64,000 nt of DNA. It comes from Gammaproteobacteria bacterium (GTDB lineage Bacteria > Pseudomonadota > Gammaproteobacteria > Pseudomonadales > Azotimanducaceae). Shown here piece after piece: positions 56,968 to 61,610 of this stretch. Below the pieces are notes generated by a model. It had not been told where the DNA came from. It did no database searches and was given only the letters and a program-made list of their open reading frames with translations. The position numbers were made by a program, and so were the translations under genes. The first letter of the stretch is position 1. Every line of letters begins with the position of its first letter. The stretch is from NCBI GenBank assembly GCA_012960535.1, contig DUBB01000014.1:1-64000 (forward strand), in the 5' to 3' direction.

Positions 56968-58164
56968 TTAATTACTGATGGATTGCAGCGGGTCCAGCCC
57001 TAACACACGATTGTAGGTATTGTGGTAGTGATGCAAGGCAGGTTCGTTACGGCCGAAGGTGAAGTGTTGTAAAGCACCCGAGGTCGCGCCTGCATGACAG
57101 GTGGCGGCCGCTTTGTAATCCTCATCTCTGATAATTTCACTGAAACCAGCCAGTCTGTCGCTAATGCCTTCTCGAAAATCCTGCGGAATTTCCGTGTTGG
57201 TATAAAACGACACCTGTGAAAATGATTCATGCGGGTTGTCTTTATTGGGGTATACCCTTACCAGGGTTGCGCCAGACATCTCCCCTTTTGGCCTGCCGGG
57301 TATTCTCCCGCTGGGTATAAGCTGGATGTTTGGAAACAGGTAGTAGACAGGAATAGTGGCTGCTAACAGGTCCCATTCCTCTTCAGGCAGGTCACGAAAC
57401 AGATCAATTGCCTTGGAGCAAAGCAGCATACGGTGATTGTTCTCGAAAATATCATAGCACTGCACGTTGCCGTAGACATTCTGACCGAGCGTGTCTTTGT
57501 GCAAGACTGGAAAGTGGTAGGTTTCACCAAAGGTGTCAATGGCGAGCTTCCAGTTCATCGGTGTCTGGTAGGTCTCCAGGGCACCAAAGCTGAGTTTGCC
57601 GAATCCCCAGGAATCTAATTCATCACCCAGATCCCCCAGTAGGGCATCCAGGTCAAATGTCTGACCGGGCTCAGGATGCACCCAGAGAAGGCCATGTTTT
57701 TCTTGGGCCGTAAGTCTTACCAGGTTATAGCAAGGCTTCTCCACCGGGCCAAAATGATTCTCCTTGGGGACCGATACCAGATCGCCACTATTACTGAAGC
57801 CCCAGCCATGAAACGGGCAATTAAATGAAAATTTTTTGCCTCGTTCTTCCTGCACCAGAACTGTGCCACGGTGAGTACAGACGTTGAGAAATGCCTGAAA
57901 CAAGCCATCTTTGTCTCGGGTTAGCAATAGTGGCTTGCCCAATTCGGTTGAAGTTATAAATGAACCAGGCTCAGGCAGGTCAGCCGATAAACCCATGACC
58001 TGTGGGTAGAACTGGAACATCAGTCGCCATTCATCGGCAGCACGTTTGGCGCAGGTGTACGCCTCAACAGGGTTGACCACAGCGCCACCAGCATCAACAT
58101 TAATGCCCAGGTCCAGTCGATGCATTAGCAGTTTCATACATCTTATCTGTTCAGCTTGGTCCAT
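56968..58164 (-). CDS. Rieske non-haem iron oxygenase, alpha-type subunit
   Basis: 398 residues. The Rieske [2Fe-2S] ligands are Cys96-x-His98 (CTH) and Cys116-x2-His119 (CPFH); the mononuclear iron ligands His217 and His222 are in ETYHFPVLH. It hydroxylates or demethylates an aromatic, quaternary ammonium or other substrate, with electrons from a separate reductase that is not encoded nearby. No beta subunit is adjacent, so it may be a homotrimer such as the O-/N-demethylase types. It converges with the sulfatase; a short AGCGCA/TGCGCT hairpin (56931-56945) lies between the stops. Confidence 0.9.
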   Translation of the reverse strand: MDQAEQIRCMKLLMHRLDLGINVDAGGAVVNPVEAYTCAKRAADEWRLMFQFYPQVMGLSADLPEPGSFITSTELGKPLLLTRDKDGLFQAFLNVCTHRGTVLVQEERGKKFSFNCPFHGWGFSNSGDLVSVPKENHFGPVEKPCYNLVRLTAQEKHGLLWVHPEPGQTFDLDALLGDLGDELDSWGFGKLSFGALETYQTPMNWKLAIDTFGETYHFPVLHKDTLGQNVYGNVQCYDIFENNHRMLLCSKAIDLFRDLPEEEWDLLAATIPVYYLFPNIQLIPSGRIPGRPKGEMSGATLVRVYPNKDNPHESFSQVSFYTNTEIPQDFREGISDRLAGFSEIIRDEDYKAAATCHAGATSGALQHFTFGRNEPALHHYHNTYNRVLGLDPLQSISN

Positions 58165-58282
58165 AATCGAGAGATTGGTCGGTTATATGAGTTTGGTAAA
58201 TAACCGTAGCATATCCTTAGAAATTGATAAATAGTTAACCTTTGCAGGAAGGATTCGCTAAATCCGTATTTTCACAGAGAAG

Positions 58283-58912
58283 CTACTGGAGTTGGGATTC
58301 AGCAAAGGAGAGTACACCCAGGGCATGGACCCGGGTCTGATAGGGTTCAATGAAGATCTTGCCAACGACTTTCATGGCCCTGTTAACGACAAATACGCCG
58401 GGATAGGGTATGCCATAAGAGGATTGTCCAGGTTGGTAATTGGTGTTTAGTATATCCAGAGAAATGACACTTTTGGCATCAATGTCTGACAGTAAAGGGT
58501 AACTTATCTCGTGCCTGTCGATGAATACCTGCTGCAGTTCCGGCGCATCATAAGTCAGGGCCACAATGGAGATGCCCGCTTTGGAAAACAACTCAGAATT
58601 TTCATGCAGCTGGACCAGCTGCTTCATGCAATAGGGTCACCAATCCACCGATCGGCTGGCAATGAAGATCATACCTTTGTCACCCATAAACGACTGCAGG
58701 TCAGAAACAGTCCGTCCTTGATACACAGCCATCAGCAGAGGGAAGTCTTCACCCGTTGCAATTCCGGGGTTGAAAGCATCGCTATCTGCATCAACAAACA
58801 TGCTGTCTGTTAGCCAGCTATGGGTGGTTTGTTTGAGGGCTTCCGCTTGCTGTTGCTGTGCCAGTATTACCATGGCTATAACAATGACCAGTTGCTGGAT
58901 TATTTTTTTCAT
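58283..58912 (-). CDS. Probable selenoprotein: exported redoxin with UxxC active site (TGA = Sec92)
   Basis: One frame of 209 codons from ATG 58912 to TAG 58283 is interrupted only by TGA at 58637-58639. The text around it reads SVDW-(TGA)-PYCMKQL, exactly the place of the first Cys in a thioredoxin-fold CPYC motif, and the protein continues as an AhpC/TSA-like redoxin (LFSKAGISIVALTYD, YPLLSDID, PGVFVVN). So TGA most likely encodes selenocysteine. A signal-like N-terminus (VIVIAMVILAQ) suggests the periplasm. A perfect 7-bp hairpin lies just downstream (listed separately). The alternative is a nonsense-mutated gene, but the exact active-site position and hairpin argue against this. AAAGG precedes the ATG. 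Confidence 0.82.
58606..58622 (-). promoter_or_regulatory. Candidate bacterial SECIS hairpin
   Basis: On the minus strand GCAGCTG-GTC-CAGCTGC is a perfect 7-bp stem with a GTC loop, beginning 14 bases after the TGA. The apex has GGTC, as in the E. coli fdhF SECIS, whose critical loop G and U are at about the same distance from the TGA. It lies inside the coding sequence, as bacterial SECIS elements do. Confidence 0.7.
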
Positions 58913-59140
58913 TTGCCTTTCCTGTCTGGCACCATTGTCGTTTGGACTGCCTCTGCTAGTGTTCGTTCTTTTTACCTATAACAATTACCTAAAACTGCTA
59001 CCGAAAAACGATCGATGCTTGTACAACTTGGCTCAGGGCCAGGTTGTTGAGCCCCGGTTCATCGGGCCGGCCGTTTTACTGCCGGCCTGAACTGATCCAG
59101 GTGATTCCCTGCCAGATTTATTTCAAAGGGCGCCAGACTG

Positions 59141-60385
59141 TTACGAAACTGATTTTTCGCTCTGGGGCCTGCCGACGCTTCCAGAGATCATATTACGATT
59201 GCGTTCTTCCTTAGCTGACACCTGCGTTGGCGCGCCTCTGGCCTTGAAATTAAAGGGTGTGGTATCAATATCTTCCAGTTCCAGTTCTCCATTGAGTACT
59301 GCTTGCTTCCACTGCTGGTGTTCGGCCTCGCGTTCATGGAACTCCGGCATCAGCTGTTCAGCAAACAGCTGTAGACTTGAACAAATATCTTCGTGGGTGT
59401 TCTTACCGGCCTGGTTGAGGAGAATGACCTGATCAACATTGGCTGCTTCTAGCTCAAGGAGTTTACTCCTGATAGTCTCTGGTGAGCCAATCAGCTCGCT
59501 ACCCGAACGTTTTTGACCCGCAGGCGTCTGTTTCCATTCCTGGTATCGTTCCCAGAAGTTGACAGTACCAGGTTTGAAGGGACCTTCCTTGTTATAGAGT
59601 TGTAACGCAAACTGGAAGAAAGTCCAGCCATCCGCCTTCTGCCAGGCCTCCTCGTCCGTCTCACAGCACATGAATCCGGAGACGACAGCAATGTTCGGAT
59701 TCGCCTGATAGTCACATAGTTTTTCCTGATGCCGGGTGAAGGTATTGTAGTAAGCATTAACCCAGGCGCGGGATGCCTCTATGTCAACAAACTTAAACGA
59801 AAGCGCGCCCATGCCTCGGTGGGCCGCGTAACGGATGGTATCTAATTGCGAGCAGGCCACCCAGAGGGGAGGATGCGGGGATTGCAGGGGTTTTGGAATC
59901 ACTGCGCGGAGCGGAAATTGAAAGAATTCGCCATCATATTCCCAGGCATGATTGTAGAACATGGGTAATACGCATTTGACAGCATCTTCCCAGACATCAC
60001 GTTTGTCTCTGAAGCGCAGATTAAAGGGGTGCAGTTCTGTAACAGAGCTACCCTCGCCTAAGCCGAATTCAACTCGCCCGTCCGATATAAGGTCCAAGGT
60101 TGATACTTTCTCAGCAACCCTGGCCGGGTGGTTCGTTGTCATCTGGATGATGCCGTGGCCCAGTCTTATGTTTTTGGTTCGCTGGCTTGCGGCGGCCAGG
60201 AAAACTTCCGGAGCAGAGGAATGCGAGTATTCTTCAAGGAAGTGATGTTCTACCTCCCATGCATAGTCGTAGCCTAAATCGTCAGCCAGGGCTATTTGAT
60301 CCAGTGATTGTTTCAGTAGCTGGTGCTCGCTATTGGCGGTCCAGGGCCTGGGGAGTTGATGTTCGTAGAAGACTCCAAATTTCAT
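59141..60385 (-). CDS. Luciferase-like (LLM class) flavin-dependent monooxygenase
   Basis: 414 residues. GVFYEHQLPRPW at the N-terminus, AWEVEHHFLEEY, IRLGHGIIQMTTNHP, FGLGEGSSVTELHPF and PHPPLWVACSQ are blocks of the bacterial luciferase barrel, in the subgroup related to alkanal/terpenoid monooxygenases. It needs reduced FMN supplied by a separate reductase. The C-terminus extends about 60 residues beyond the barrel and is polar. AAGG precedes the ATG. It is divergent from the second luciferase-like gene, so the two may share regulation. Confidence 0.85.
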   Translation of the reverse strand: MKFGVFYEHQLPRPWTANSEHQLLKQSLDQIALADDLGYDYAWEVEHHFLEEYSHSSAPEVFLAAASQRTKNIRLGHGIIQMTTNHPARVAEKVSTLDLISDGRVEFGLGEGSSVTELHPFNLRFRDKRDVWEDAVKCVLPMFYNHAWEYDGEFFQFPLRAVIPKPLQSPHPPLWVACSQLDTIRYAAHRGMGALSFKFVDIEASRAWVNAYYNTFTRHQEKLCDYQANPNIAVVSGFMCCETDEEAWQKADGWTFFQFALQLYNKEGPFKPGTVNFWERYQEWKQTPAGQKRSGSELIGSPETIRSKLLELEAANVDQVILLNQAGKNTHEDICSSLQLFAEQLMPEFHEREAEHQQWKQAVLNGELELEDIDTTPFNFKARGAPTQVSAKEERNRNMISGSVGRPQSEKSVS

Positions 60386-60695
60386 CGCTGCGCCTTATCG
60401 TTAATTTCCTCTAGCCTACACCTAGATGCTAATCTCGACAAATCAGATAGTTGGTATAATGTGGCGCGGCCTGGCAGGCAGCCAGGCCGTAATTGGGGAA
60501 GGTGCGCTGCAAGGAGAGGTTAAAGAACTTATCTCTACCTGGCTTGGCTTAGGCGATTGGGTTAAAAGGCGGAGAATTACAGTAGGTTGTTCATGACTTT
60601 AATAAGCTGAAGATGGAGTCGAGGCCTTAACCCCTATAAGCTTTGCGGAAGGGTTGTGTTTAATCTGAGTGAAAAGCGTAGGGGAGTACTTTTAT
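60386..60695. other. 310-bp divergent region between two luciferase-like genes
   Basis: No ORF is convincing. It contains an extended -10 promoter followed immediately by a strong hairpin (next entry) and ends with the SD of the plus-strand gene, GGGGAG at 60681-60686. Confidence 0.5.
60452..60489 (+). promoter_or_regulatory. Extended -10 promoter with a 9-bp hairpin at the predicted transcript start
   Basis: TGGTATAAT (60452-60460) is a perfect extended -10. A transcript would begin near 60467, which is the first base of CGGCCTGGC-AGGCA-GCCAGGCCG (60467-60489), a perfect 9-bp stem with five-base loop. The leader to the next start codon is about 230 bases. The hairpin may stabilise the 5' end or act in regulation; there is no T-run, so it is not a terminator. 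Confidence 0.5.
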
Positions 60696-61610
60696 TTGAA
60701 AGTAGGAATATCAGTTAGCAGTTCTTACCAATCCAGAGACGTAGTTGAAGGTGCCCGATTTATGATCGAACGCACACGCGTGGCTCGTGATGCAGAATTG
60801 GATTCATTGTTCCTGGGGGATCACCACATCACACCTACGCCTTATTACCAGAACGTGCCAATGCTGGGACGGCTACTGGCAGAGTGGAGCGATCGACCGG
60901 CGGGGGTATTGTTATTGCTGCCGTTGTGGAATCCTGTGTTGGCTGCTGAGCAACTGGCGAGCTTGGCCTGTTTATCAAAAGGCAGGCTGATAATGCAATG
61001 TGCTCTGGGGGCAGGCCGTTCACAGTTTCAAGGTATGGGGGCGAGTTTGAATTCACGGGTTAAGCGCTTTGAAGCGTCATTGGCCATTATGAAGAGGTTG
61101 TGGCGGGGTGAGACGGTGACGTCCGAAGGCGTATGGAAAATAAAAAACGCCCGAATTTCGCCACTGCCGCCGGCTTCTATAGATGTCTGGATTGGTGCCA
61201 GTGCGGATAAAGCACTCGACCGGGCGGCGCGACTGGGTGATGCCTGGCTTGCTGATCCAGGATTAAATTTCAATGAATTGCAGCTCAAGTTAGACGTATA
61301 TCAACAGGCACTTAACCGCCATGGTAAGAAACAGCCGGAGACCCTGGCATTACGGAGAGATATTTATGTGGCTGAATCAGCAAGGGACGCAGCGCAAGCC
61401 AGGGCGGCATCAATAAAATCGAACTATCGTGGCATAACACCGGAGTCACTATTGATTGGTGAGGCAGGTGCTATTGCTTCTGCCTTGCTGGAATTGGAGG
61501 AGGCGGGATTTACTGATGTCATTATCAGGAACCTACACCCTGAACAGACCAAGGCACTGCAGTCTACCGAGCGACTCGCCGAAGTACGTCGACTGGTTGC
61601 CTCCAGGTGA
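60696..61610 (+). CDS. Luciferase-like (LLM class) flavin-dependent oxidoreductase
   Basis: 304 residues from TTG 60696. The barrel start KVGISVSSSYQSRD, LFLGDHHITPTPYY, LLLLPLWNPVLAAEQLA, QCALGAGRSQFQGMG and PASIDVWIGASADKAL match the family. The TTG is chosen because GGGGAG (60681-60686) lies nine bases before it and the protein then starts at the first barrel strand; GTG 60669 has no SD. An MFS exporter/importer follows 131 bp downstream on the same strand. Substrate and cofactor (FMN or F420) unknown. Confidence 0.83.
   Translation: MKVGISVSSSYQSRDVVEGARFMIERTRVARDAELDSLFLGDHHITPTPYYQNVPMLGRLLAEWSDRPAGVLLLLPLWNPVLAAEQLASLACLSKGRLIMQCALGAGRSQFQGMGASLNSRVKRFEASLAIMKRLWRGETVTSEGVWKIKNARISPLPPASIDVWIGASADKALDRAARLGDAWLADPGLNFNELQLKLDVYQQALNRHGKKQPETLALRRDIYVAESARDAAQARAASIKSNYRGITPESLLIGEAGAIASALLELEEAGFTDVIIRNLHPEQTKALQSTERLAEVRRLVASR

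What the first reader, a model, noticed from the sequence alone, without database searches (positions are those of the whole stretch)
58283..58912. In-frame TGA at the UxxC position of a redoxin: probable selenoprotein
Seen: one frame of 209 codons, with a single TGA (58637-58639) followed by Pro-Tyr-Cys; the neighbouring text (DW before, MKQL after) is what surrounds CPYC in thioredoxin-fold redoxins. Known: several redoxin families with UxxC are selenoproteins, many first seen in marine bacteria. Inference: TGA is read as Sec, so the ordinary gene call splits the gene in two or truncates it. The predicted periplasmic location would be notable.
Basis: partly seen in the sequence, partly recalled or inferred. 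Interest (0 to 1): 0.78.

Follow-up and report, generated by a model that had tools for sequence, protein, structure and literature searches.

The report
Exported redoxin with selenocysteine, mis-called
An apparent stop codon in this bacterial gene almost certainly encodes selenocysteine, the rare selenium amino acid, at the active site of an exported redox protein; this is a well-supported new example of a known kind of protein, not a new kind.

Summary
The TGA very likely reads as selenocysteine (Sec). The genome carries selA, selB, selD and a tRNA-Sec. In 390 genomes of the order, 40 orthologue-tier hits have TGA (24), Cys (15) or Ser (1) there; all 24 TGA forms, but only 5 of 16 others, lie in selA-positive genomes. 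A hairpin just downstream meets the published bacterial SECIS model and shows compensatory changes. Its five-pair core plus G[G/U] loop is kept in 23 of 24 TGA forms and 0 of 16 others. The loop is the Val100 codon, near-invariant in Sec forms only, so the RNA seems to constrain the protein. The fold is AhpC/TSA with UxxC and a hydrophobic, export-type N-terminus. This is the Prx-like UxxC selenoprotein kind in print since 2005. Four Pfam families sampled in this genome give at least nine selenoprotein candidates. Sec insertion, location and substrate remain untested at the bench.

The parts
58283..58912 (-). selenoprotein gene: AhpC/TSA-fold redoxin, 209 aa, Sec at residue 92, stop TAG 58283-58285
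   Evidence: orthologues with the same TGA
58637..58639 (-). in-frame TGA read as selenocysteine (U92 of the UPYC motif)
   Evidence: aligned with TGA in 24, Cys in 15 and Ser in 1 of 40 orthologue-tier hits
58628..58630 (-). Cys95 codon (TGC), partner of U92; invariant in the 19 rows of alignment A1
58606..58622 (-). bacterial SECIS hairpin GCAGCUG-GUC-CAGCUGC: 7 bp, 3-nt loop, 21 nt between UGA and loop, MFE -11.3 kcal/mol
   Evidence: covariation; consensus model in the Fig. 2 legend of PMC13188914 (passage)
58613..58615 (-). apical loop GUC of the SECIS, which is also the Val100 codon
   Evidence: position 100 is Val in 23 of 24 TGA forms and 3 of 16 others
58916..58923 (-). Shine-Dalgarno-like AGGAAAGG before the ATG
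   Evidence: sequence by eye, (no formal RBS test)
58838..58912 (-). hydrophobic N-terminus (about residues 1-25): export signal or membrane anchor
   Evidence: hydropathy 2.75 over 15 residues; predicted helix 2-36 in the AF2 model
58364..58717 (-). AhpC-TSA domain (PF00578, residues 66-183)
   Evidence: (3.8e-17, 62.8 bits; cut-off 26)

Best explanation
The gene encodes an exported, probably membrane-anchored periplasmic redoxin of the AhpC/TSA (Prx-like) superfamily with a U92-Pro-Tyr-C95 active site. Translation reaches UGA 58639-58637. SelB, carrying Sec-tRNA(Sec), is held there by the hairpin that begins 14 nt further on and whose G-U loop is also the Val100 codon, and Sec is inserted instead of termination. 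In the protein, U92 sits at the start of the active-site helix, where thioredoxin and ResA have their attacking Cys. The likely chemistry is attack by the selenolate on a disulfide or peroxide, resolution by C95 as a selenenylsulfide, and re-reduction by a periplasmic thiol donor. Supported here by computation: conserved TGA, machinery, SECIS covariation, Cys counterparts, domain and fold. Inferred: actual Sec insertion, periplasmic location, substrate and electron donor.
For: Machinery on one contig: selA 569.7 bits, selB 425.8 bits directly downstream, selD 255.3 bits, tRNA-Sec 49.8 bits against a gathering score of 47 with UCA in the anticodon loop. TGA in 24 of 40 orthologue-tier hits, all 24 (in 23 genomes) selA-positive; the other 16 are Cys 15 and Ser 1, of which 5 are selA-positive; Fisher p 1.9e-6, not corrected for relatedness. 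SECIS: in 20 TGA-form sequences (window plus 19 relatives) the 5-pair core is paired in 100 of 100 cells with 8 double-change cells; cells paired, double-change cells and covariation score are reached by 0 of 500 shuffles, and slid controls pair in 1-44%. The published bSECIS constraints are met. Core stem plus loop G[G/U]: 23 of 24 TGA forms, 0 of 16 others, 2 of 80 Cys loci. Fold: PF00578 3.8e-17, AF2 pLDDT 85.1, Foldseek PDB hits PrxQ/BCP, Prx and ResA. Hydrophobic N-termini in 35 of 40.
Against: The hairpin's folding energy is not unusual (z -1.28 for 39 nt, -0.48 for 66 nt). In L028 the minimum-energy fold of the 39 nt is a different one, and a Cys form (L137) folds about as stably, -10.5 kcal/mol, in another shape. 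Two of five covariation measures do not beat the shuffles: pairs with a double change (172 of 500 reach it) and further pair types (463 of 500). In the seven-pair version the top pair fails in 14 of 20. A loose bSECIS scan (stem >=5) hits 34% of all TGA in the window. ARAGORN calls the tRNA-Sec a tRNA-Lys, and its Rfam score is only just over threshold. No protein or selenium-labelling data exist here. The Prx Thr-x-x-Cys/Sec motif is absent, so peroxidase activity is doubtful.
Confidence: 0.9

Rival explanations
1. Ordinary premature stop: a pseudogene or sequencing error.
For: An in-frame stop splits the ORF in two.
Against: Same TGA in 95% and 89% identical relatives and one TGA in all 26 matches at E<=1e-20 in 38 genomes, own included; TGA in 24 of 40 orthologue-tier hits; no other disruption in the window gene; downstream protein sequence conserved.
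Confidence: 0.01
2. UGA is read through by another route (Trp suppression or a reassigned code).
For: Read-through frames are conserved.
Against: TGA ends 4 of 9 neighbouring genes and none of the 9 has an in-frame TGA; in nine genes of this genome the in-frame TGA stands at a redox-active position; homologues show Cys (15) or Ser (1), not Trp; full Sec machinery.
Confidence: 0.02
3. Sec is inserted, but the enzyme is a true peroxidase (a Sec peroxiredoxin) rather than a thiol:disulfide oxidoreductase.
For: AhpC/TSA domain; best structural hits are PrxQ/BCP and other Prx.
Against: The Prx motif TxxC/U is not met: in the alignment to 5xbs the Prx motif Cys falls on C95 and its Thr falls on U92; UxxC is thioredoxin/ResA-like. 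The same genome has two separate TxxU peroxiredoxin genes.
Confidence: 0.25
4. Sec is inserted, but the domain stays in the cytoplasm, tethered by an uncleaved N-terminal helix with the opposite topology.
For: The window protein's signal has no clear cleavage site by eye and AF2 gives one long helix 2-36.
Against: Distant members have, by eye, cleavable-signal-like N-termini (L147, L150, L156) or a lipobox-like one (L146) (no signal-peptide program was at hand), and Lys-Lys at the N-terminus favours N-in (positive-inside rule, recalled).
Confidence: 0.1

Closest known systems
Prx-like thiol:disulfide oxidoreductase selenoproteins (PF00578, UxxC); 'Prx-like protein' of the Sargasso Sea set and 'Prx-like 1' of the GOS set
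   Same: AhpC/TSA domain, thioredoxin-like UxxC instead of Prx TxxU, bacterial SECIS, Cys homologues (passages of PMC1088965 and PMC2398784; table of PMC13188914).
   Different: No sequence of the published representatives was compared here, so the exact subfamily is not shown; export, the Val100/loop coupling and SECIS decay in Cys lineages were not in the passages that I read.
Redoxin family protein selenoprotein (PF08534, UxxC) in the 2026 review table
   Same: UxxC and redoxin-type domain; the window protein also matches PF08534 at 3.4e-12.
   Different: PF00578 scores higher; no sequence compared.
ResA/TlpA-type thiol-disulfide oxidoreductases
   Same: CxxC site aligned with UxxC and a related fold; exported (recalled for ResA).
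   Different: NCBIfam ResA model 28.3 bits against a cut-off of 170.
Selenocysteine peroxiredoxin (TxxU)
   Same: AhpC/TSA domain.
   Different: Sec stands three residues earlier; TxxU not met.
SelL and SelL-related redox proteins
   Same: Weak match to the SelL-related redox model.
   Different: 27.2 bits against a cut-off of 120.

Membership tests
Prx-like thiol:disulfide oxidoreductase selenoprotein (UxxC) | AhpC/TSA domain PF00578 | tested here: met
   62.8 bits against cut-off 26
Prx-like thiol:disulfide oxidoreductase selenoprotein (UxxC) | UxxC active site in place of TxxU | tested here: met
   DW-U-PY-C; C95 invariant in 19 aligned sequences
Prx-like thiol:disulfide oxidoreductase selenoprotein (UxxC) | Cys homologues at the Sec position | tested here: met
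   15 Cys and 1 Ser of 40. The 80 Cys loci were found with a pattern that demands Cys and are not independent support.
Prx-like thiol:disulfide oxidoreductase selenoprotein (UxxC) | bacterial SECIS (loop 3-9 nt, stem 4-16 bp, G in first two loop positions, spacing 16-37 nt, MFE <= -7.5) | tested here: met
   loop 3, stem 7, G first, spacing 21, -11.3 kcal/mol
Prx-like thiol:disulfide oxidoreductase selenoprotein (UxxC) | Sec machinery in the same genome | tested here: met
Prx-like thiol:disulfide oxidoreductase selenoprotein (UxxC) | sequence similarity to the published representative | not tested
   the representative's sequence was not at hand
Prx-like thiol:disulfide oxidoreductase selenoprotein (UxxC) | selenium in the protein; thiol:disulfide activity | not testable with these tools
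   needs 75Se or mass spectrometry and an assay
Sec peroxiredoxin | TxxU motif | tested here: not met
   U92 aligns with the Thr of the Prx TxxC
SelL-related redox protein (NF040769) | score over curated cut-off | tested here: not met
   27.2 against 120 bits
ResA (NF002854) | score over curated cut-off | tested here: not met
   28.3 against 170 bits

The most novel reading that the evidence does not exclude
This gammaproteobacterial lineage runs a selenium-based redox network in its cell envelope: exported UxxC redoxins, a signal-peptide-bearing TxxU peroxiredoxin about 8 kb from selAB and a UGC TlpA-like protein work together, and the SECIS hairpin has frozen a residue (Val100) of the protein for RNA reasons alone, a residue released in lineages that carry Cys instead.
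Probability: 0.25. Interest if true: 0.6.

Novelty: new member of a known kind. Interest (0 to 1): 0.42.

Why it matters
A standard-code ORF list splits this gene in two. Beyond that, the family gives a compact natural comparison: TGA orthologues keep the SECIS and a Val codon in its loop, while most Cys orthologues lack both, so the cost that a coding-region SECIS puts on a protein can be measured. With at least nine selenoprotein candidates the genome passes the published threshold (six) for 'selenoprotein-rich'; the papers whose passages I read place most such organisms in Deltaproteobacteria, Clostridia and Synergistetes. [quoted passage not shown]

Tried and rejected
Pseudogene or sequencing error: rejected by conservation. 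Genetic-code reassignment: rejected by normal TGA stops. True Sec peroxiredoxin: TxxU not met. SelL and ResA families: below cut-off. Folding energy as evidence for the hairpin: not significant alone; covariation and the comparison with Cys forms carry the weight. Operon or partner inference: of ten relatives' loci searched, only two (L193 of G011, L194 of G009) share flanking genes with the window (families of six window neighbours). Six other loci of the genus (L196, L198-L202) share an HI0933-like and an MltC-like gene with each other, and three of them a glyoxalase-like gene; so neighbourhood gives no function. Literature: the motif strings gave 1,052 papers, of which 20 were listed, by title unrelated; Halieaceae plus selenoprotein gave none. 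Class-wide search: 1 of 369 sampled genomes at E<=1e-35, the window's own, so no other sampled genome of the class passes that threshold.

Extra stops: four of the 40 orthologue-tier matches (L150, L156, L160, L161) were listed with a TAA or TAG; in each it is the terminal stop, at the last few residues of the match.

Trees., 40 rows with the trait residue masked as X: Sec forms need at least 2 changes; Cys clades sit in f40 and in genus g60 of f44., rooted attempt: 38 of the 40 rows (L180 and L182 dropped for long branches), 7 more Sec relatives, and 25 outside Cys rows (every third of the 73 loci L060-L132): 3 changes, and the outside rows are not one side of any branch. The f44 Cys clade lies inside Sec rows; the direction for f40 stays open.

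Full report
Observation. The gene lies on the minus strand, 58912 to 58283, 209 codons plus TAG, with one in-frame TGA at 58639-58637 followed by Pro-Tyr-Cys. The ORF list splits it into 91 and 114 aa. A Shine-Dalgarno-like AGGAAAGG precedes the ATG (by eye). Of three TGA sites in the window's six frames flanked by at least 80 open codons before and 100 after, only this one has a Cys codon three codons on.

Machinery. In the window's own genome (4.24 Mb, 53 contigs, 93.6% complete) selA (569.7 bits) and selB (425.8 bits) are adjacent on contig C42. selD (255.3 bits) is on the same contig, as the C-terminal part of a 742-aa frame whose N-terminal part matches Pyr_redox_2 and whose C-terminal part matches AIRS and AIRS_C. 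GOS reports Ndh-SelD fusions (passages of PMC2398784); that this is one of them is my reading. A tRNA-Sec lies within 0.3 kb of the selD match, 49.8 bits against a gathering score of 47, with UCA in the anticodon loop; ARAGORN calls it tRNA-Lys.

Conservation. In 38 genomes (own included) 29 have a match at E<=0.001; all 26 matches at E<=1e-20 carry one TGA, 5 of them in the roughly 400-aa paralogue. The TGA stands at the active site in the loci read; L035 was cut by a frameshift and not read there. Weaker matches include frames without a stop. In 390 genomes of the same order, 87 have a match at E<=1e-15. The 40 matches of 150 bits or more were read codon by codon: TGA 24 (in 23 genomes), Cys 15, Ser 1. 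The roughly 420-aa paralogue scores under 150 bits and is outside this set; the rest of the tail, mostly without stops, was not read. selA is present in 56 of 390 genomes. All 24 TGA forms are in selA-positive genomes; of the 16 others 5 are and 11 are not (Fisher p 1.9e-6; rows are related, so p is only indicative). Four of the 40 were listed with an extra TAA or TAG, which is the terminal stop. A scan of named genomes gave 80 Cys loci (the best 80 of 180), among them Seongchinamella, Pseudohalioglobus and Halioglobus at 49-53% identity (Seongchinamella is in Halieaceae). Its pattern demands Cys, so it is no unbiased test. In the class, 1 of 369 sampled genomes (the own one) matched at E<=1e-35.

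SECIS. Fourteen nucleotides after the TGA begins GCAGCUG-GUC-CAGCUGC. It meets the published bacterial model: loop 3 nt, stem 7 bp, G at the first loop position, 21 nt from UGA, -11.3 kcal/mol (model from the Fig. 2 legend of PMC13188914, passage). On 20 TGA-form sequences the five-pair core is paired in 100 of 100 cells with 8 double-change cells. Cells paired, double-change cells and covariation score were reached by 0 of 500 shuffles; the number of pairs with a double change (172 of 500) and of further pair types (463 of 500) were not unusual; slid controls pair in 1-44%. In the seven-pair version 89.3% of cells pair, and the top pair fails in 14 of 20. One covarying pair joins the third base of a Gln codon to the first base of a Leu codon (CAG..CTG against CAA..TTG), so both sides change silently. 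Intact core plus loop G[G/U]: 23 of 24 TGA forms, 0 of 16 others, 2 of 80 loci; the core alone, 23 of 24, 2 of 16 and 8 of 80. Against this, the folding energy alone is unremarkable, one Sec form (L028) has another minimum-energy fold, and a Cys form (L137) folds about as stably in another shape.

RNA writing the protein. The loop triplet GUC is the Val100 codon. Position 100 is Val in 23 of 24 TGA forms (Gly in one) and in 3 of 16 others (Ile 5, Gln 4, Ala 2, Glu 1, Arg 1); Fisher p 5.8e-7, again uncorrected for relatedness. In 16 further loci (two, L031 and L041, repeat genes of the first set) it is Val in 16 of 16, and in the 80 Cys loci in 10. The simplest reading is that the SECIS, not the enzyme, holds Val100. 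That is an inference.

Protein. PF00578 matches at 3.8e-17 and PF08534 at 3.4e-12. A profile search of PDB sequences finds peroxiredoxins and ResA. The AF2 model has pLDDT 85.1 and pTM 0.74, with U92 just before helix 93-104. Foldseek hits are PrxQ/BCP, Prx and ResA. In the Prx alignment U92 falls on the Thr of TxxC; in the ResA alignment on the first Cys of CxxC, so the site is thioredoxin-like. N-termini are hydrophobic in 35 of the 40 sequences, with one lipobox flagged (L146); L139, L141, L175, L180 and L182 score low. Start codons were chosen by a simple rule and no signal-peptide program was run.

Selenoproteome sampling. Of 11 AhpC/TSA matches in the own genome, 6 have one in-frame TGA, each at the redox position: TPGU, TGGU, WUPPC, WUPYC twice (the window gene and a 286-aa frame with a hydrophobic N-terminal part) and YUGC. 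A DsbA-family gene (1 of 10 matches) has UPWC, a CMD-family gene (1 of 8) CLYU, and the single Rdx/SelW-like match CLQU. A strict hairpin rule (spacing 19-22, loop 3-5 with G[G/U], stem at least 5), which I framed after seeing these genes, is met by 8 of 9, and by 36 of 2460 TGA in the window (1.5%); the looser published-type rule with stem at least 5 is met by 34% of all TGA. Six is the published line for 'selenoprotein-rich' (PMC5029168, section 14). Only four families were searched, so nine is a lower bound on candidates.

Evolution. On the 40-row tree Sec needs at least two changes. With 25 outside Cys rows it needs three, and a tree with all Sec rows as one side of a branch is rejected (p-AU 6e-79, a group named before that tree but after the first one). 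The f44/g60 Cys clade lies among Sec rows, so one Sec-to-Cys replacement is likely; four of those five genomes still have selA. PMC1794560 (abstract passage) calls such replacements few.

Prior knowledge. Sargasso Sea 2005 (passages of PMC1088965) lists 22 Prx-like sequences, 21 with UXXC and 1 with UXC, in place of the Prx TXXU. GOS 2008 (passages of PMC2398784) lists Prx-like 1, PF00578, UxxC, 225 sequences. The 2026 review (PMC13188914, section 7 part 1) lists the family as predicted with high confidence. The window gene is a new member of that kind; it was not compared with a published representative sequence.

Verdict. Sec at U92: very likely. Export: likely. Thiol:disulfide chemistry: more likely than peroxidase, not shown.

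Noticed in passing
G000:C49:55685-56128 (L052, L164): Paralogue family of about 400-430 aa with WUPPC and a long C-terminal part, with TGA in several genomes.
   Followed up: partly
G000:C42:105763-106128 (L163): TGGU peroxiredoxin with in-frame TGA and, by eye, a signal peptide, about 8 kb from selAB.
   Followed up: partly
G000: C43:150371, C12:52053, C30:22603, C7:74351, C2:161562, C7:130974: Six more genes with a TGA at a redox position: PrxQ-like TPGU, a WUPYC redoxin in a 286-aa frame, UGC TlpA-like, DsbA-like UPWC, CMD CLYU, SelW-like CLQU.
   Followed up: partly
L014 1393-3621 (-): 742-aa frame with a Pyr_redox_2 domain and a C-terminal SelD (AIRS) part, next to tRNA-Sec.
   Followed up: yes
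L006 1501-1589 (-): ARAGORN calls the Rfam tRNA-Sec a tRNA-Lys (ctt) with shifted ends.
   Followed up: yes
L037 and L035: Two relatives' copies seem broken by a frameshift, after the TGA in L037 and before it in L035; perhaps assembly errors.
   Followed up: no
window 56968-61610: A Rieske oxygenase and two luciferase-like flavin monooxygenases stand beside the gene; an aerobic, catabolic setting is my inference.
   Followed up: partly
L182 (G100): One orthologue-tier copy has Ser at the Sec position with the second Cys kept (SPWC), in a selA-negative genome.
   Followed up: no
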